From Bacteroidia bacterium (GTDB taxonomy: Bacteria > Bacteroidota > Bacteroidia > B-17B0 > Aurantibacillaceae), in NCBI GenBank assembly GCA_026414605.1, contig JAOAIP010000038.1, positions 1-64,000 on the forward strand: 64,000 bases of DNA, given 5' to 3'. The position numbers and the translations under genes are program-made. Shown piece by piece: positions 11,717 through 45,857 of this stretch. Within the stretch, counting starts at the first letter, position 1. Each line of letters begins with the position of its first letter. A model generated the notes under the pieces. The model worked only from the letters and a program-made list of their open reading frames with translations, ran no database searches and was not told where the DNA came from.

Positions 11717-13948
11717 TCATTGAATCTTTATCAATTTAAATGTCTTTAAAATTTCATTATTAGCAGAAAGTATTTGCAAAAGATAAATACCATTGGAAAG
11801 TATTGATACATCTACTTTCCAAGAGTTGTAATTCTTTTTTTCTACTTCAATAACCACTTTCTTGCCTGTAATATCTATAATTTGAATCCGTGATTTATCA
11901 ATATTAAAATTATTTTGACATTCAATAGTAACTTCTGTATTTGAAGGATTAGGATACATTTGAAAAACATTATCATCTTGAATTATTTCAGGAACATTCA
12001 CTGCTTTTGAAGAAAAATAATGAATTCCACCTGAATAATTTCCAACAATTAAATCCCGAATGCCATCATTATTAATATCTACATATTGTGGAGCAGAACG
12101 GATGCCTGTGCAAATACGATTAACCATTGTATCTACAGTGCGAAATGTTCCATTCAAATTACCATCAATTTGATCATATAAAATTAAATTTCCATTAATA
12201 GATCCACACAATAAATAAGTAGTGTTATTTTCTTTGTACATAAAAGGCACAGTACCCCCATCACCTGCATAATATATAGGATTTAAGTTAGTATTTACAT
12301 TTCCAAAGTTAGTTGTAATCAAGGAAAAATTGGGCGTAGATAATGTGCCAATATTTTGATAATAAACAATTCTGTTTTGTTTATTACCAATTATTAAATC
12401 TAATTTTCCGTCATTATTGACATCGTATAAAAAGGGATAAGCAGGTGGTGTACTCACTGAAATACCAAACATATTTTGATGAATAATTGAAAAATTACAG
12501 GGAAATCCAAATCCTGCAGTATTTTCAAGCCAATGAATTTTTCCTGCATTATCGCCCAACAAAATATCTATATCGCCATCATTGTCAATATCACCAGCAG
12601 TAGGTGCAAGATTGAGTTTTTGTAATGAAGACAAATTCAAATAATCTCTGGTAATGAGTGAAAATTGCGGTGTAGATAATGTTCCTATATTTCTATAATA
12701 AGTCAATGTAGATACATTGCTATTGGGCTTAAACGTGTTATAATATCCCAAGTTTCCAATCAACAAATCCTTTTTTCCATCATTATCAATGTCTATAATC
12801 AATGGATAAGCCCCTTCACCTACATCTATACAATGTTCTATTAAAAAATTCTTTTTGATAAAAATAAAACTATCTTTGGTAGAAGTGCCAACATTCTTGT
12901 AAAACCAAATGCAATTGTAATTTTCACCTGCACTTAAATTGGGCGAAGCCACCAGATCTTTTTTTCCATCATTGTCAAAGTCATCATAATACACACAAGG
13001 AAAATTGTTTAACTTAATAATCGTTGTACTGGCTTTTGATGGATAATTTGGAAATAATCTCGTAGTATCTTGAATATTGGCATTAGAAGAATTTCCTGTA
13101 TTATGTAAATAGATTATGTTGTTACAACTCACATCACCCAAAAGAAGATCTTTATCCCCATCTTTATCAAGATCTGCACAAGTAATGCAAGATCCACTAT
13201 GATAAATTTTTTCAATATTAGAAAAATGATCAAATCTATTGGAACAATTATTAAACGTTACAGAACAATTTCCTTCACTAAAATTTCCCCAGCAATTTGT
13301 TTCTAATTGAAAAACCAAACTATCAGAATGATTATACCACTCTTTGCTTTTATTAATATGATACTCTACTGAAAAACCTATAGAACTAAATGTCAATATA
13401 TCCAAATCGCCATCATTATCAATATCACTAATCGCAGGTAACCCCACCGAAGATGCATAAATAGGGGCATTTACAGGATTGCCCGATGGATTGTAATTAG
13501 AATACAGTATATTCTTGAACAATTGAAAAGAAAAGTTTCCAGCAGTTGAAGTATTCTTATAAACTCTTATTCCACCTGTTGTAGATGTAAATATATCTAC
13601 TTTTCCATCTTGATTAAAGTCCTTAAAAATAGCCCAATTGACAAGTTTTGGAAAAGCATTGGATAAATAATAATCATAACGATATTTGGCTTCATTATTG
13701 TTACCAATATTGACAAAACATTTGACTTGTCCATAATTAAACATATGGATTCTGTCATAAACAATAATATCTTCTTTGCCATCTTCGTTAATGTCTGCTT
13801 TGAATACATTTGAATGATTTAATCCACCACAGGTAGAAGAATAAAGCACTTGATTATTTTCAATCACTTTTAATGTATCGTATCCTACTGGCAATTGAGC
13901 AAAGAGTGTAGATACAAGACAATACATTATGAGAATTATATTTTTCAT
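11717..13948 (-). CDS. FG-GAP/VCBS-repeat secreted protein with T9SS type-A sorting domain
   Basis: A 743-residue secreted protein starting at the ATG at 13948, giving the signal peptide MKNIILIMYCLVSTLFAQ. The GTG at 13972 lies inside cdsA. Nine calcium-type D-x-D-x-D-G-x-x-D loops are visible (for example INEDGKEDI, DIDNDGDLDI, DLDKDGDKDL, NNDGIRDLIVG), the mark of VCBS/FG-GAP propeller repeats. The last 80 residues (from YPNPSNTEVTIE to the terminal FKLIKIQ) are a type-A T9SS C-terminal signal, so export by the type IX system and surface attachment or release are expected. It begins 11 nt after the cdsA stop. Confidence 0.92.
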   Translation of the reverse strand: MKNIILIMYCLVSTLFAQLPVGYDTLKVIENNQVLYSSTCGGLNHSNVFKADINEDGKEDIIVYDRIHMFNYGQVKCFVNIGNNNEAKYRYDYYLSNAFPKLVNWAIFKDFNQDGKVDIFTSTTGGIRVYKNTSTAGNFSFQLFKNILYSNYNPSGNPVNAPIYASSVGLPAISDIDNDGDLDILTFSSIGFSVEYHINKSKEWYNHSDSLVFQLETNCWGNFSEGNCSVTFNNCSNRFDHFSNIEKIYHSGSCITCADLDKDGDKDLLLGDVSCNNIIYLHNTGNSSNANIQDTTRLFPNYPSKASTTIIKLNNFPCVYYDDFDNDGKKDLVASPNLSAGENYNCIWFYKNVGTSTKDSFIFIKKNFLIEHCIDVGEGAYPLIIDIDNDGKKDLLIGNLGYYNTFKPNSNVSTLTYYRNIGTLSTPQFSLITRDYLNLSSLQKLNLAPTAGDIDNDGDIDILLGDNAGKIHWLENTAGFGFPCNFSIIHQNMFGISVSTPPAYPFLYDVNNDGKLDLIIGNKQNRIVYYQNIGTLSTPNFSLITTNFGNVNTNLNPIYYAGDGGTVPFMYKENNTTYLLCGSINGNLILYDQIDGNLNGTFRTVDTMVNRICTGIRSAPQYVDINNDGIRDLIVGNYSGGIHYFSSKAVNVPEIIQDDNVFQMYPNPSNTEVTIECQNNFNIDKSRIQIIDITGKKVVIEVEKKNYNSWKVDVSILSNGIYLLQILSANNEILKTFKLIKIQ

Positions 13949-40576: not shown

Positions 40577-42955
40577 ATGAAAAAAATCGCTCATTTTATC
40601 CTTCAAAATAAATTCATTTTAAGTAGTGCTATTTTTTTATTAAGCATTGTATTAGCATTTTTTGCACTCAAAGTAGAAGTGGCTTTTCAATTTGTCAAAT
40701 TATTACCAGATAATGATCCAACAAGTATTCAGTATGAAAAATTTAAAAAGTATTTTAAGCAAGATGGTACGATATTAGTCATTGGTACAGAGTTTCATCA
40801 ATTATATCATCCAAAAGTATTTAAGGAATGGCATTTGTTAGGCAATAGAATCAAAAACATTCAAGGCATTCAATCTGTTGTCAGTATTGATAGATTGCTT
40901 AATATAGAATACAATGATTCATTAGAAAAATTTATAACAAAAGATCACGAATTGCCCAATTTTGATGATTCATTGAGTATTGCAAATTTTTTAAATGAGG
41001 TTCAAAACAATAAATTTTATGAGGAATTGATATTTAATAAAGAGAAAGATATTGTGGTAACAATGGTTACTTTCAAAGAAAAAGAATTGAATTCTAAACT
41101 GCGTCTTAGCATTACAGATTCTATTGTAAACCAAACGCAAAGTTTTGAAAAAGCAACTCATCTCTCACTGCATCTATCAGGGATGCCTTTTATACGCACA
41201 ACAATGATGCGTAAAATTTCATCTGAGACCACTTTCTTTTTTATAGTTGGTATTATTGTAGTATCGGTTTTGTTGTGGATATTCTTTCGATCGCCCATTG
41301 TGATTTTACTTTCAGCATTGGTGATTATTTTGGGTGTGGTGTCTGCTTTAGGAATTATGGTATTGCTGGGATATAAATTGTCCATTCTATCTGGATTATT
41401 ACCTGCTTTGTTGATTATCATTGGTGTACCAAATGGCATTTTGATTATCAATAAATACCATCACGAACTAAGGGCTGGTTATCCTGTTGAAAAAGCATTG
41501 GAGTTAGCCATTCGCAGTGCAGGAAATTCATTGTTTTTTGCTAATGTTACAACGGCTATTGGCTTTGCAGTATTATCATTAATTGACAATCAGATATTGT
41601 ATGAGTTTGGGATTATTGCGTCTATCAGTGTAATGTTAGTATATGTTTATTCAATTGTACTAATACCATCATTATTTAGTTGGTTACCTGCACCAAAAGA
41701 AAAGCACCTGATGCATCAAGAAAAGAAATGGTTGAAAAAAACACTCAATAGCATTGCATTATGGACATCGTATCATAGAAAAATTATATTTGTAGTAGTA
41801 GTAATCGTTGCGATTATTGGATTTTATGGATTTACAAAAATTCAAACTTTGGGGTATGTAGTAGATGATGTCCCAAAGAAAGAAAAGATGATGCAGGATT
41901 TACGCTATTTTGAAGATAAATTGGGCGGTGTTTTGCCTTTTGAAATTATGATTGACACTAAAAAGCCCAAAGGTGTTGTTGAAAATAACGGCAGAGTGTT
42001 ATATCGAATGCATAGAGCCCAAAAACTTTTGAGACAATATCCAGAATTAAGCCGTTCGCTTTCTATTGCAGACGCTATAAAATGGATCAATCAAGCATAC
42101 AAAGGAAAATACACAATGCCTGCAGTTTCTGATTTAAAGAAAATAGCAGATGTATTAAAAAGTGATAGCACACAAAAAAGAAACTCAGTAGCACAAAATT
42201 TAATGTCCAGTTTTATAGACACCAGTTATCAAATAGCCCGTATTAGTGCACAAATGAAAGATATTGGATCAATAAAGATAAAAGATCTTTTAAATCAATT
42301 GCAACCAAGATTGGATAGTATATTTAATTATGATGAAGACCAACAGCAATGGGTACCACAAGATAAAAGAGTAGAAATAAGCATTACAGGAAATAGCATT
42401 TTATTTTTGAAAGGGAATGATTTTTTAGTCAAAAATTTGATTGAGAGCATTGCTACTGCAATGGCGATTATTGCATTGTTATTATTAGTATTATTTAGAA
42501 ATCCGTATATGTTGTTGGTGGCTATCATTCCTTGTTTATCCTTGTTAGTAACTTCAGGAATAATGGGTTATTTAGGAATACCATTAAAGCCCAGTACTTT
42601 GTTAGTATTTAGTATTTCTTTTGGTATTGCCACAGATGGCAATTTGTACTTTTTGACACGATTTAGAAATGCAATAAAATTGCAGCACAAAACGTATGAA
42701 GAAGCCATTCGCTTGACCATTCGTGAAATAGGAATGAGTATGATCTACAATGGATTGGTTTTGTTTTTTGGGTTTGGAATGTTTGTCATATCCGATTTTG
42801 GCGGTACAAAAGCATTGGGGGTACTTACAGCATTTACATTATTAGTTGCATACAGTGTGGATTTAATTGTATTACCTACTGTATTACTTACATTCAAAAA
42901 ATGGTTTAATAAAAGGTTAGAGAAACAAAAAATTCAAAATTTTAAATGTTTGTAA
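40577..42955 (+). CDS. MMPL/RND superfamily exporter
   Basis: A 792-residue inner-membrane transporter with two repeats, each one N-terminal segment, a large periplasmic loop, and five more segments (first set about 215-370, second set about 630-780). The MMPL/SSD-like pattern includes GIPNGILIINKYHHELRAGY-like (about 284-303) and GIATDGNLYFLTRFRNA in the second half. It probably exports lipids or hydrophobic compounds using the proton gradient. The last nine residues (QKIQNFKCL) are not in the duplicated copy at 45255, where the frame ends at RLEK-stop. This suggests the original C-terminus was altered. Confidence 0.92.
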   Translation: MKKIAHFILQNKFILSSAIFLLSIVLAFFALKVEVAFQFVKLLPDNDPTSIQYEKFKKYFKQDGTILVIGTEFHQLYHPKVFKEWHLLGNRIKNIQGIQSVVSIDRLLNIEYNDSLEKFITKDHELPNFDDSLSIANFLNEVQNNKFYEELIFNKEKDIVVTMVTFKEKELNSKLRLSITDSIVNQTQSFEKATHLSLHLSGMPFIRTTMMRKISSETTFFFIVGIIVVSVLLWIFFRSPIVILLSALVIILGVVSALGIMVLLGYKLSILSGLLPALLIIIGVPNGILIINKYHHELRAGYPVEKALELAIRSAGNSLFFANVTTAIGFAVLSLIDNQILYEFGIIASISVMLVYVYSIVLIPSLFSWLPAPKEKHLMHQEKKWLKKTLNSIALWTSYHRKIIFVVVVIVAIIGFYGFTKIQTLGYVVDDVPKKEKMMQDLRYFEDKLGGVLPFEIMIDTKKPKGVVENNGRVLYRMHRAQKLLRQYPELSRSLSIADAIKWINQAYKGKYTMPAVSDLKKIADVLKSDSTQKRNSVAQNLMSSFIDTSYQIARISAQMKDIGSIKIKDLLNQLQPRLDSIFNYDEDQQQWVPQDKRVEISITGNSILFLKGNDFLVKNLIESIATAMAIIALLLLVLFRNPYMLLVAIIPCLSLLVTSGIMGYLGIPLKPSTLLVFSISFGIATDGNLYFLTRFRNAIKLQHKTYEEAIRLTIREIGMSMIYNGLVLFFGFGMFVISDFGGTKALGVLTAFTLLVAYSVDLIVLPTVLLTFKKWFNKRLEKQKIQNFKCL
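42824..42925 (+). repeat. Direct repeat copy A (3' end of MMPL gene)
   Basis: 102 bp encoding MMPL residues 750-783, repeated at 45255-45356 without gaps. There are three differences (ctt/cta, agt/agc, aaa/aag), all synonymous third-position changes. Confidence 0.95.
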
Positions 42956-42987
42956 TTCAATTATTTACTAAAAATACATCAAAAAAA

Positions 42988-43023
42988 TTTGTTTTTTTTT
43001 TTTTTTTTTCGTAAATACATTTG
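42988..43023 (+). promoter_or_regulatory. Promoter with an 18-T homopolymer spacer
   Basis: TTTG (42988-42991) is followed by 18 consecutive T (42992-43009), CGTAAA and TACATTTG (43016-43023, TAnnTTTG). The spacer is 24 nt, against 20-23 for the better promoters in this window. Slippage in the T tract would change the spacing and so the strength of transcription of the lipoprotein gene at 43133. Confidence 0.6.
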
Positions 43024-43028
43024 CCCCC

Positions 43029-43064
43029 GCTAATGTATTGTAAGGCGCCTACAAGACCATTAGC
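43029..43064. repeat. 36-bp palindrome in the lipoprotein leader
   Basis: Nested arms GCTAATG/CATTAGC, TTGTA/TACAA and GGC/GCC centred on GGCGCC form an almost loop-free dyad immediately downstream of the predicted -7 element. It would form a stem-loop at the 5' end of the transcript. Confidence 0.75.
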
Positions 43065-43087
43065 ACGAGTATTTGGCCAAATCTCGT
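43065..43087. repeat. Second palindrome abutting the first
   Basis: ACGAG and CTCGT flank the perfect 12-bp palindrome ATTTGGCCAAAT, with one extra T on the left. It begins at the base after the first palindrome ends and lies about 45 bp before the ATG at 43133. Confidence 0.75.
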
Positions 43088-43132
43088 ATGATTAATTAAA
43101 AACCATCATTAACCAATTAAAAAATTAAAATT

Positions 43133-43645
43133 ATGAAAAAAGCAATCATTTTGGTGGCATGTTTATCAATAATTGCTTGTAATAAGAAAGAAATAGGATT
43201 AAGTACTCAACCAGAAACAAATTCCATTATAACGGACGGGAATAGTAATTTGAAGCAGAATGTTTCTTGGGGTATATGTTGTGTGTGGAATGGCGTTGAC
43301 GATTGTGTCAAACCAGCCGTAAATTGCTTTGAGCCCGTAATCATTACACCAAAGTACACAGAACGTGCAAAAGCAAAGCATAATTTTGACTCACTAATTA
43401 CATTGGGTCCTAAGGGCGTTGCTAACTTCTTTTACTCCGATGATGCAAAAAAATTATTCCCAGATTTAACGTGTGTATGTGATAAAAATCCTTTTATAGA
43501 GTATTTGAATAAACTCACAAGTGGAAATTATTACATTACAACGACGCAGAAGGGTAACAAATTTTATTACTTAGTAAAACCTAATGGTACAAACAATGTG
43601 GATTTTGTTTTAGTTATCAAAGAAGAAGGAATTGGAAATAATTAA
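43133..43645 (+). CDS. Cysteine-rich hypothetical lipoprotein
   Basis: A 170-residue lipoprotein (LSIIAC, C16) of no family I recognise. After the lipid cysteine there are six more: C49-C50, C58, C65, C114 and C116 (WGICCVWNGVDDC, NCFEP, LTCVCDK), enough for three disulfides or a metal site. The C-terminal half (about 120-165) looks like a small beta sheet (YYITTTQKGNKFYYLV). It is the first gene of the island between the MMPL repeats, with its own promoter and terminator, so it may be made in larger amounts than the genes behind it. Confidence 0.8.
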   Translation: MKKAIILVACLSIIACNKKEIGLSTQPETNSIITDGNSNLKQNVSWGICCVWNGVDDCVKPAVNCFEPVIITPKYTERAKAKHNFDSLITLGPKGVANFFYSDDAKKLFPDLTCVCDKNPFIEYLNKLTSGNYYITTTQKGNKFYYLVKPNGTNNVDFVLVIKEEGIGNN

Positions 43646-43660
43646 ACCAATTGGTAAAAG

Positions 43661-43704
43661 AAATGAGGAAACTACACTTAAAAAGTGGTTTCCTCATTTT
43701 ATTT
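43661..43704 (+). terminator. Hairpin terminator after the cysteine-rich lipoprotein
   Basis: AAATGAGGAAAC pairs with GTTTCCTCATTT, extended by CACTT/AAGTG across a 2-nt bulge, followed by TTTTATTTG. Confidence 0.8.
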
Positions 43705-43751
43705 GTACTCTTCACATAATTTTTTAAAAGAATTGTTTTTAAGTATTCAAT

Positions 43752-44858
43752 ATGCGCATTTTTATTGTTTTAATACTGCTTATATTTTTCTTAAGGTGTA
43801 ACTTAAAAACTAAAGATATTTATGATCATCTTGTTATACCTGCAAATAAATGTCTCGTAACAGATAATATACAACTTCCATTTAATACAGATAGTGTACA
43901 CACAATAAAGTATTTTCATAATAAAAATTCAAGCGGTGATTATTTGTTTCTAAAAAGTTCTGGTAACAATATTTATTTTTTGAATTTACATTCAAAAAAA
44001 TTGACCCTTATACCATTCCCAACTAAAATTGATATTATTGATTTTGCCATTCATTCAATTGACAGTATTTATTTATTAACTGAAGATATTATTTATTTAA
44101 TTGACAATAAAGGACACTTAATAAATACAATAGAAATACCTTCTATTAAGGGTTACCATTTTTTTGCATCCTCTTTATTTCCATTTTACATAATAGATTC
44201 TTTGGCGTTTTTTTATAAATATCCTGAAGGTATAATCAATAGTTTAGATAAATATCACGAATTCATCAACTCTGATAGAGAAGTTTGTTACGATATCAAA
44301 CGTCAACAATTTATTGATTTAAAAAATAAAATCCACTATCCAAAAGAATTGAAATATCACTTCAAATATGTATTTAATCCTTGCAGAATAATAGATGATA
44401 AAATGAATTTAATATATTCATTTGAACATTCTGATACGGTTATTCTTTTAAATTATACATCTCAAAACATTCAAACATTTTCCATCAAGAGTAAATTTTT
44501 TGAAAACAACAATGACTTTGATTTTGAAAAAATAAATAATTTTTCAGAAATAGCAAGATATTTAATACAAAATTCAAGATATTATTCCATACTTTATGAT
44601 CCTTATAGAGAACTTTATTATAGAATTCATTTATGCAAATATACTTATTATAATAAAGATAATTCTATCAATTTAAGAACAGACGTTCCTTGGAGTATTC
44701 TTGTATGTAATAAAGAATTTAAAGTCATAAAAGAAATATTATTTGAACCTCGAACATACTATTTTAATCATATTATAATAACTAAAGATGGTTTATTAAT
44801 TAAAAAACAATCTTATGCGAATACTTATTCTCTTTTCAATGCTTTTACTACTTTGTAA
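43752..44858 (+). CDS. Propeller-like hypothetical lipoprotein (DUF4221-like?)
   Basis: A 368-residue exported protein: hydrophobic N-terminus MRIFIVLILLIFFLRC (C16, weak lipobox), then many short beta-strand units (DYLFLKSSGNNIYFLNL, SIYLLTEDIIYLIDNKGHL, TYYFNHIIITKDGLLI) suggesting a beta-propeller. Layout and length resemble DUF4221/six-bladed propeller lipoproteins of Bacteroidota, but I cannot assign it firmly. Codon use is extremely AT-rich, rich in Ile, Asn, Lys and Tyr, more so than the flanking genes. Its end overlaps the next gene by 44 bp in another frame. Confidence 0.75.
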   Translation: MRIFIVLILLIFFLRCNLKTKDIYDHLVIPANKCLVTDNIQLPFNTDSVHTIKYFHNKNSSGDYLFLKSSGNNIYFLNLHSKKLTLIPFPTKIDIIDFAIHSIDSIYLLTEDIIYLIDNKGHLINTIEIPSIKGYHFFASSLFPFYIIDSLAFFYKYPEGIINSLDKYHEFINSDREVCYDIKRQQFIDLKNKIHYPKELKYHFKYVFNPCRIIDDKMNLIYSFEHSDTVILLNYTSQNIQTFSIKSKFFENNNDFDFEKINNFSEIARYLIQNSRYYSILYDPYRELYYRIHLCKYTYYNKDNSINLRTDVPWSILVCNKEFKVIKEILFEPRTYYFNHIIITKDGLLIKKQSYANTYSLFNAFTTL

Positions 44859-45234
44859 TTGTAATATTCATAAAAAAAGTACAGAACAAGAATTGTTATT
44901 AATACTAAAATCATTTAACCTAAAAATTCAAGATAATACAGTGTATTTGCTTATACCATCAAACACTTGCTATGGATGTAGAAGAAAAACAATTGACACT
45001 TTATCTCAATTATCTTCTATAAAAAAATTAAATATTATTGTTATTACTTCCGACATATCTTTATTAACTTATAATAAATTACCCTATAAAATGATATTAG
45101 ATACACATCATATCGTTGATCGAAGTAGATATTTCAAAGAAAAGATTACATTATATCAACCAAACAAACAAGAATGTTCCATTAAACAGTTTGAACAATA
45201 TTCTATTGACAGTATATATATCTATCTGCGATAA
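44815..45234 (+). CDS. Thioredoxin-like CxxC lipoprotein
   Basis: A 139-residue exported protein with a lipoprotein-type signal (LLLLCNC, C14 or C16). A thioredoxin-like strand-loop-helix follows: NTVYLLIPSNTCYGCRRKTIDTL with C52-x2-C55, then KLNIIVITSD and YKMILDTHHIVD. It is shorter than TlpA proteins (about 160-190) and lacks an obvious cis-proline loop, so redox activity is uncertain. It overlaps the propeller gene by 44 bp and is the last gene before the MMPL repeat copy B. Confidence 0.7.
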   Translation: MRILILFSMLLLLCNCNIHKKSTEQELLLILKSFNLKIQDNTVYLLIPSNTCYGCRRKTIDTLSQLSSIKKLNIIVITSDISLLTYNKLPYKMILDTHHIVDRSRYFKEKITLYQPNKQECSIKQFEQYSIDSIYIYLR

Positions 45235-45248
45235 AAACGAAATTTTGA

Positions 45249-45359
45249 TACACGCTAACAGCATTTACATTATTAGTTGCATACAGCGTGGATTTAATTG
45301 TATTACCTACTGTATTACTTACATTCAAAAAGTGGTTTAATAAAAGGTTAGAGAAATAG
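45249..45359 (+). pseudogene. MMPL 3'-end fragment, direct repeat copy B
   Basis: In frame from 45255 this encodes the same 34 residues as the MMPL C-terminus (LTAFTLLVAYSVDLIVLP, ending FNKRLEK) and then stops with TAG at 45357. It is 99/102 identical to 42824-42925. The upstream frame is closed by TGA at 45246, so nothing else of an MMPL gene remains. It may be the original 3' end of the MMPL gene, cut off when the 2.4-kb block arrived. Confidence 0.9.
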
Positions 45360-45473: not shown

Positions 45474-45857
45474 ATGAATACCATTGAAAAATTACTTGTC
45501 ATTGTAGGGCTTTTAGTAGTGGGTTATTTAAGTGTATTAGTAAATATCATTGGCTTAAAAAAGCGAGAACTAAGAGAAAATAAATGGAACAGAGGACTAC
45601 TGTGGATAAGTGCTGTGATGGTTGCCTTTGGGGCATTTTTAAAGGTTTTACACATTGGACACTTAATAGCAGATGGATTATTAATTGGTGGTTTGGTATT
45701 GATGTTTGTCTTTTTATTCAAATATCTTCTACATTATAAAGAACTCAAATCAATGGATGCACAAAGCATTAAGATGGCTGTTTTAAGTAATAAAGTATAT
45801 TATATTGCTTATCTGTTGTGGTTGGTTGTATTGATTTACAGTTATTTTATTGCCTGA
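45474..45857 (+). CDS. Small four-helix membrane protein (GldL-like pattern)
   Basis: A 127-residue protein with four predicted membrane segments (about 7-27, 42-60, 66-86, 107-125) and a short basic loop after the first. The segment FGAFLKVLHIGHLIADGLLIGGL resembles the FKxxHxxG membrane pattern of GldL and related Bacteroidota proteins, but the protein lacks the long GldL C-terminal domain. Function unknown. In the probable ancestral arrangement it followed the MMPL gene directly. Confidence 0.75.
   Translation: MNTIEKLLVIVGLLVVGYLSVLVNIIGLKKRELRENKWNRGLLWISAVMVAFGAFLKVLHIGHLIADGLLIGGLVLMFVFLFKYLLHYKELKSMDAQSIKMAVLSNKVYYIAYLLWLVVLIYSYFIA

What the first reader, a model, noticed from the sequence alone, without database searches (positions are those of the whole stretch)
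43133..45234. Candidate undescribed surface module: Cys-rich lipoprotein, propeller lipoprotein and CxxC thioredoxin-like lipoprotein
Three exported proteins, each with a lipoprotein-type signal, sit in an acquired block. The first has six cysteines, the third a thioredoxin-like CxxC and the second a likely beta-propeller. A terminator separates gene 1 from genes 2 and 3. Bacteroidota have loci pairing small Cys-containing exported proteins (NVEALA type) with propeller and TlpA-like proteins. This resembles that idea with an unrecognised first component. The thioredoxin-like protein might set or break disulfides in the first protein.
Basis: inference. Interest (0 to 1): 0.7.

Follow-up and report, generated by a model that had tools for sequence, protein, structure and literature searches.

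The report
Cysteine lipoprotein, propeller, thioredoxin-like gene cassette
A recently inserted three-gene cassette makes a cysteine-bearing exported lipoprotein together with a propeller protein and a thioredoxin-like protein, and it turns out to be one form of a widespread, undescribed Bacteroidota module whose likely job is to fold and display a small exported protein.

Summary
Three lipoprotein-type ORFs lie at 43133-45234 in a low-GC block flanked by a 102-nt, 97% identical copy of the upstream gene's 3' end, so the block was inserted. Gene 2 is Pfam DUF4221. Gene 3 has a predicted thioredoxin fold (pLDDT 85.5). Gene 1 has no Pfam or NCBIfam match; of its six mature cysteines only a C-x6-C pair is invariant (14 of 14). 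The same gene order recurs: 13 of 15 extended loci carry all three genes. Across 64 distinct DUF4221 genes, the two-sided context (small Cys-bearing exported protein before, thioredoxin-like or CxxC gene after) occurs in 25 of 52 against 1 of 80 controls. One DUF4221 follows a true NVEALA peptide, and two natural fusions join the thioredoxin-like domain to a propeller. A hairpin between gene 1 and gene 2 recurs. Gene 1 carries lysine at +3, as many Bacteroidota surface lipoproteins do; genes 2 and 3 mostly do not. Best reading: gene 3 matures the disulfide of abundant gene 1, gene 2 binds it or hands it on, and gene 1 goes to the surface. The biochemistry is untested. The papers searched hold nothing on DUF4221 or NVEALA.

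The parts
42824..42925 (+). upstream copy of the 102-nt direct repeat, inside the 3' end of the MMPL/RND-like gene 40577-42955
   Evidence: the gene now reads on into the inserted DNA and ends KQKIQNFKCL
42926..45254 (.). inserted block (2329 bp, 25.5% GC)
43029..43087 (+). two small hairpins in the gene 1 leader; weak (z -1.5), role not established
43133..43645 (+). gene 1: 170-aa lipoprotein, C16 lipobox, K18 (+3), invariant C58 and C65, conserved C-terminal domain of about 90 aa
43656..43704 (+). terminator-like stem-loop between gene 1 and gene 2; a hairpin at this place recurs in relatives
43752..44858 (+). gene 2: 368-aa lipoprotein, Pfam DUF4221 (PF13970), probable beta-propeller
44815..45234 (+). 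gene 3: 139-aa lipoprotein, thioredoxin fold, C52-Y-G-C55
45255..45356 (+). downstream copy of the 102-nt repeat, keeps the native 3' end of the MMPL/RND-like gene

Best explanation
It is a self-contained three-gene cassette for making and displaying one exported protein. Shown by sequence and predicted structure: gene 1 is a lipoprotein with an invariant cysteine pair; gene 2 is a DUF4221 protein, probably a beta-propeller; gene 3 is a thioredoxin-fold lipoprotein with an invariant first active-site cysteine; the cassette recurs in distant Bacteroidia and was inserted here. Inferred: the hairpin behind gene 1 lets the cell make much more of gene 1 (the product) than of genes 2 and 3 (its helpers); genes 2 and 3 face the periplasm on the outer membrane; gene 3 forms or corrects the C58-C65 disulfide of gene 1 there; the propeller binds gene 1 or passes it on; gene 1 is then moved to the cell surface. 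It is the long, lipid-anchored form of a wider module in which the product is usually a 60-80 aa cysteine-bearing exported peptide, the NVEALA type included. What gene 1 does on the surface is not known; a signal, an adhesin and an antagonistic peptide are all open.
For: Same order in 13 of 15 extended loci, no shared fourth gene. Of 5 mature-domain gene-1 profile hits among the newly fetched gene-1-side loci (L081-L102), 4 have DUF4221 next; the exception L082 is a 1.9-kb locus. 64 distinct DUF4221 genes: upstream Cys-bearing small exported protein 34 of 56 against 24 of 110 controls, downstream thioredoxin-like 35 of 60 against 1 of 120, both sides 25 of 52 against 1 of 80. Fusions: DUF4221 with a thioredoxin-like domain in one 538-aa ORF (L062, by local profiles); thioredoxin-like domain with a DUF5128 6-bladed propeller (L057). 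Gene 3 model pLDDT 85.5, Foldseek top 4yod thioredoxin-like E 3.5e-4, VIA Z 9.3 (rmsd 3.2 over 113 residues) to 1lu4. Hairpin between product gene and propeller gene: 9 of 9 gene-1-type gaps of 47 bp or more, 14 of 19 peptide-type gaps, 17 of 57 control gaps. Lysine at +3 in 14 of 14 gene-1 proteins, 1 of 14 gene-2 and 2 of 14 gene-3; the mBio 2016 paper (PMC5080379, passages seen) found +3 K in 72% of surface lipoproteins. Similarity matrices of the three genes correlate over 17 loci (0.49, 0.55, 0.70).
Against: No experiment. The strict export signal K-(D/E)2 is met by only 2 of the 14 gene-1 sequences printed; the window has KKE. Gene 1 could not be folded (pLDDT 39.7, 5 sequences). Gene 3 lacks a proline at the usual cis-proline place in the window protein. 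In some relatives gene 3 has lost the second cysteine. Five gene-1-type loci of the 13 have gaps of 16 bp or less and no hairpin. The matrix correlation may partly reflect species descent. The control for 'small exported protein' is noisy (24 of 110).
Confidence: 0.5

Rival explanations
1. The product is a secreted, enzymatically modified peptide or bacteriocin (RiPP-like), and the window carries a stripped-down, anchored form. The thioredoxin-like protein sets disulfides as in glycocins and the propeller is a helper or immunity protein.
For: In several peptide-type loci the gene right behind the thioredoxin-like gene is a modifying or export gene: UDP-glycosyltransferase (L047 twice and L066, Pfam; L048 by position and likeness only), Ser/Thr kinase (L049, L070), JmjC_2 oxygenase, then an unknown protein, signal peptidase and MacB permease (L072), C39-peptidase ABC exporter (L140, a gene-1-type locus in the window's own family); radical SAM upstream (L071). 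Glycocin clusters pair a cysteine peptide with a glycosyltransferase, an exporter and a thioredoxin-like enzyme (PMC6405829, passages seen).
Against: Gene 1 is a lipoprotein, not a leader peptide; in the other 14 of 15 extended gene-1-type loci I saw no modification or export gene directly behind the cassette, reading ORF starts and with only a few checked by Pfam; no PADLOC hit; no growth-inhibition data.
Confidence: 0.22
2. A redox enzyme like methylamine dehydrogenase: propeller heavy chain, small cysteine-bearing chain with a built-in cofactor, and a MauD-like thioredoxin protein that folds it (comparison recalled, not tested).
For: Same three ingredients; natural fusions of thioredoxin-like and propeller domains.
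Against: Only two cysteines of mature gene 1 are conserved; no MauE-type membrane gene or electron carrier was seen to recur beside gene-1-type cassettes.
Confidence: 0.08
3. The module is a redox or metal sensor in which gene 1 reports the state of its cysteine pair to the propeller and gene 3 resets it.
For: Invariant C-x5/6-C pair; gene 3 variants without the second cysteine.
Against: The product gene is set apart by a hairpin, which suggests unequal amounts; no regulator gene was seen to recur in the flanks.
Confidence: 0.1
4. Neighbourly coincidence of three unrelated lipoproteins in an AT-rich insertion.
For: The block is an insertion with skewed composition.
Against: Recurrence in the same order in distant genomes, and fusions.
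Confidence: 0.01

Closest known systems
NVEALA loci (Pfam PF14055 peptide followed by a 350-400 aa propeller-like lipoprotein and sometimes a thioredoxin-like lipoprotein)
   Same: Order product, hairpin, propeller, thioredoxin-like; one NVEALA peptide is directly followed by a DUF4221 gene
   Different: Gene 1 is a lipoprotein of 170 aa with an added C-terminal domain and no NVEALA motif; most propeller-like genes behind NVEALA peptides were not clear DUF4221 members
DUF4221 family, PDB 3s9j
   Same: Gene 2 is a member by Pfam cut-off and by profile
   Different: No paper on the family was found in the library held
4yod, thioredoxin-like protein BACCAC_02376 of Bacteroides caccae
   Same: Closest solved fold to gene 3
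   Different: 277 residues against 139; 24% identity
Glycocin clusters (sublancin, pallidocin)
   Same: Small cysteine product with a dedicated thioredoxin-like protein; glycosyltransferase in some relatives of the wider module
   Different: Glycocins have a precursor with a cleaved leader and an ABC exporter; no propeller and no lipid anchor (recalled)

Membership tests
DUF4221 (PF13970) | score over the Pfam gathering cut-off | tested here: met
   29.5 bits against 23.4
beta-propeller (gene 2) | propeller fold | tested here: inconclusive
   apart from 3s9j, the 12 other PDB hits of the family profile are, as recalled, propeller-containing proteins, but at E 0.0027 to 2.3; no model of gene 2 was made and the fold of 3s9j was not looked up
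thioredoxin superfamily (gene 3) | thioredoxin fold with the active cysteine at the start of the first helix after strand 1 | tested here: met
   model pLDDT 85.5, C52 just before helix 53-68; the Foldseek and VIA rows shown are thioredoxin-superfamily proteins
thioredoxin superfamily (gene 3) | CxxC and cis-proline | tested here: inconclusive
   CxxC present in the window; a proline stands at the cis-proline place in many relatives (for example SIYPK) but not in the window protein
NVEALA (PF14055) | gene 1 matches PF14055 | tested here: not met
   0 Pfam families up to E 10; no PF14055 match at E 0.01 in the window's whole genome
NVEALA-type locus (architecture only) | small cysteine-bearing exported product, then propeller, then thioredoxin-like lipoprotein | tested here: met
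Bacteroidota surface lipoprotein (LES) | C-X-K-(D/E)2 at the mature N-terminus | tested here: inconclusive
   K at +3 in 14 of 14 gene-1 proteins, but the window reads CNKKE and only 2 of 14 meet the strict form
glycocin | S-glycosyltransferase and peptidase-type ABC exporter in the cluster | tested here: not met
   no further gene in the inserted block of the window

The most novel reading that the evidence does not exclude
DUF4221 and DUF5128 propellers with their thioredoxin-like partners are the common chassis of a phylum-wide system that folds and presents cysteine-bearing exported peptides, with exchangeable tailoring enzymes (glycosyltransferase, kinase, JmjC oxygenase, radical SAM) at the edge of the module, most often in the slot behind the thioredoxin gene. 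The window cassette is its lipid-anchored branch, in which the peptide core has gained a C-terminal domain and is shown on the surface.
Probability: 0.3. Interest if true: 0.85.

Novelty: new variant of a known kind. Interest (0 to 1): 0.62.

Why it matters
NVEALA, DUF4221 and DUF5128 genes occur across Bacteroidota, yet the papers searched give the first two no function. Showing that they form one architecture, with a thioredoxin partner, natural fusions and a recurrent hairpin, turns several 'unknown function' families into one testable system and gives a first substrate-enzyme hypothesis (gene 1 C58-C65, gene 3 C52).

Tried and rejected
Pfam and NCBIfam gave nothing credible for genes 1 and 3, and PADLOC nothing for any of the three. 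PDB sequence search with the gene 1 and gene 3 profiles: nothing credible. AlphaFold of gene 1 with 5 sequences: failed (pLDDT 39.7), so its C-terminal domain has no fold assignment. Rfam on the block: only chance matches far below cut-off. The shared C-x-C-strand element between gene 1 and the short peptides is weak: 6 of 13 gene-1 proteins against 1.6 expected, 7 of 25 peptides against 3.4 expected, with a pattern written after looking. Covariation of extra gene 1 cysteines with loss of the second gene 3 cysteine (L044, L043, L130) looks like one clade, so it is not counted. Leader hairpins of gene 1: 14 of 200 shuffles fold as well. The gene-1 profile search gave 63 of 295 genomes at E 0.001, but most matches cover the signal peptide and its surroundings only (profile positions 1-60) and were dropped. 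A phmmer search of one thioredoxin-like protein of an NVEALA locus against the PDB found nothing. The neighbouring 127-aa gene 45474-45857 has no match in the 3 other genomes of the genus, so no clean empty site could be shown. Plasmid search with gene 2: none. Defence cassette and coincidence were considered and set aside. Iterated profiles drifted into signal peptides and mislabelled a few genes (for example L014 and L018 gene 3 as DUF4221); the counts in the report use mature-only profiles.

Full report
What is there. The three ORFs stand as described. Gene 1 (170 aa), gene 2 (368 aa) and gene 3 (139 aa) each begin with a lipoprotein-type signal. Genes 2 and 3 overlap by 44 bp. Between gene 1 and gene 2 is a strong stem-loop. 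The block sits between two copies of a 102-nt stretch that is the 3' end of the upstream MMPL/RND-like gene. In the relatives of the same genus that gene ends where the downstream copy ends (2 of 3 relatives aligned to the downstream copy). So the block was inserted, and the upstream gene now reads about nine residues into it. Composition agrees. Relatives within the genus gave no match to gene 1 or gene 2 (0 of 3), though they are incomplete.

What the parts are. Gene 2 is over the Pfam cut-off for DUF4221, and the family profile finds the solved DUF4221 protein 3s9j at E 6.9e-75, followed by weak matches to NHL, WD and kelch propeller proteins. Gene 3 gives a confident model (pLDDT 85.5) with the strand-helix order of a thioredoxin and C52 at the start of the first helix after strand 1; the best Foldseek match is a Bacteroides thioredoxin-like protein (4yod, E 3.5e-4), and the second aligner puts a mycobacterial secreted disulfide oxidoreductase, peroxiredoxins and ResA at Z 8 to 9.3 (rmsd 3 to 3.8 over 109 to 120 residues). 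Gene 1 matches no family. In the 14 rows of its alignment the lipobox cysteine, K18, C58 and C65 are invariant; the other four cysteines of the mature window protein are not.

Does it recur? Searching 100 relatives with gene 2 and with gene 1 gave 7 of 100 and 2 of 100 genomes, own genome included. Reading the best loci showed the same three genes in the same order. A gene 2 profile found 29 of 395 genomes of the class, own genome included, and a scan of named genomes gave 31 loci. Fifteen loci chosen for a gene 1 or close gene 2 match were then fetched with wider flanks: 13 of 15 have all three genes by mature-only profiles; one has no recognisable gene 3 (L141), and in one the contig ends before gene 1 (L143). 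Their flanking genes differ from locus to locus, so the cassette is self-contained. From the gene 1 side, 5 loci among the newly fetched hits matched with the mature domain, and 4 of 5 have DUF4221 next. The exception is L082.

The wider module. For 64 distinct DUF4221 genes, a small exported protein with two or more cysteines lies just upstream in 34 of 56 with room, against 24 of 110 control genes; a thioredoxin-like gene lies just downstream in 35 of 60 against 1 of 120; both sides (thioredoxin-like or CxxC behind) in 25 of 52 against 1 of 80. The thioredoxin-like profile was built partly from genes behind DUF4221 in the named loci, so the downstream count is partly by construction there; the loci from other genomes are an independent part. 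Outside the gene-1 type the upstream protein is mostly a 60-80 aa peptide, usually with four cysteines. One is a true NVEALA peptide (PF14055, E 2.8e-14). A PF14055 search over 198 genomes rang in 7, over the cut-off in 2, and the NVEALA genes in those two genomes are mostly followed by 350-400 aa propeller-like lipoproteins, with thioredoxin-like genes near several. One ORF fuses DUF4221 with a thioredoxin-like domain (L062, seen with local profiles; Pfam itself gave no DUF4221 call there). Another fuses the thioredoxin-like domain with a DUF5128 6-bladed propeller (L057). Such fusions argue that the partners touch.

Regulation and place. A hairpin lies between product and propeller genes in 9 of 9 gene-1-type gaps of 47 bp or more, the window included, and in 14 of 19 distinct peptide-type gaps (one duplicate locus dropped), against 17 of 57 other same-strand gaps of 40-200 bp. 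Five of the 13 gene-1-type loci have gaps of 16 bp or less without a hairpin. I read it as a partial terminator that keeps gene 1 abundant and genes 2 and 3 low; this is inference. Gene 1 has lysine at +3 in 14 of 14, gene 2 in 1 of 14, gene 3 in 2 of 14 (the start of a few mature gene 2 and 3 proteins was picked by rule and may be off). The surface signal of Bacteroidota lipoproteins is C-X-K-(D/E)2, with +3 K in 72% of the surface lipoproteins aligned (PMC5080379, passages seen); PMC11885536 (passages seen) says how they cross the outer membrane is still unknown. Most gene 1 proteins have K and one acid, so the match is suggestive only.

How it probably works. The simplest account is a product with two helpers: gene 3 forms or proofreads the C58-C65 bond in the periplasm, the propeller binds or passes on the product, and the product goes to the surface. 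The invariant first cysteine of gene 3, with loss of the second in some relatives, suits mixed-disulfide chemistry. Against it stand the missing experiments, the failed gene 1 model and the missing cis-proline in the window protein. The main rival is that the product is a modified, secreted peptide: peptide-type loci carry UDP-glycosyltransferases (L047, L066 by Pfam; L048 by likeness), kinases (L049, L070), a JmjC_2 oxygenase with signal peptidase and MacB permease (L072), and one relative in the window's own family has a C39-peptidase ABC exporter behind the cassette (L140). No background rate was measured for these neighbours. The other gene-1-type cassettes lack such genes directly behind gene 3, as far as ORF starts show.

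Known or not. Searches of the paper library for DUF4221, PF13970, NVEALA and 3S9J gave no paper, and a search joining Bacteroides, thioredoxin-like, beta-propeller and small secreted peptide gave none. A search on 6-bladed beta-propeller, Bacteroidetes, lipoprotein and peptide gave two papers, seen in the listing only. PMC4573289 (passages seen) describes a Bacteroides fragilis cluster with a TIGR04149 leader peptide, a putative lipoprotein and radical SAM genes, which is another peptide family. Only open-licence papers are held, so this does not prove that nothing is in print. I rate it a new variant of a known kind: the architecture is that of NVEALA loci, which are known by family name only, with a new lipid-anchored product.

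Noticed in passing
window 42824-42925 and 45255-45356: 102-nt 97% direct repeat made of the 3' end of the upstream gene; far longer than a usual transposition target duplication, so the insertion route (homologous integration, or an element that brings a gene end) is open.
   Followed up: partly
L047:7426-8832, L048:3314-4681, L066:7191-8510: UDP-glycosyltransferase-like genes directly behind, and in two cases overlapping, the thioredoxin-like gene of peptide-type DUF4221 loci; L066 also has a polysaccharide pyruvyl transferase and a signal peptidase I.
   Followed up: partly
L070:2151-2972 and L049:6580-7371: Ser/Thr protein kinase genes directly behind the thioredoxin-like gene.
   Followed up: partly
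L072:7451-12905: JmjC_2 oxygenase, unknown protein, signal peptidase I and MacB-type permease in a row behind the module (Chitinophaga MAG).
   Followed up: partly
L071:1394-2734: Radical SAM gene upstream of a short four-cysteine lipoprotein, DUF4221 and thioredoxin-like gene in Mucilaginibacter psychrotolerans; its N-terminus looks PqqD-like to me (recalled, not tested).
   Followed up: partly
L062:38-1654 and L057:1525-3102: Natural fusions of the thioredoxin-like domain to DUF4221 and to a DUF5128 6-bladed propeller.
   Followed up: yes
L140:115-2334: C39-peptidase ABC exporter behind a gene-1-type cassette in a genome of the window's own family.
   Followed up: yes
L047:4266-4772 and 12372-12839: Gene 3 relatives with a CxC in place of CxxC.
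   Followed up: no
phage record MT836891.1:3655-4617: An 8.3-kb unannotated record labelled Bacteriophage sp. encodes a DUF4221-like protein (24% identity, E 5e-7); may be mislabelled bacterial DNA.
   Followed up: no
L051:7773-8494: Two adjacent paralogous six-cysteine exported peptides next to a DUF5128 propeller gene.
   Followed up: no
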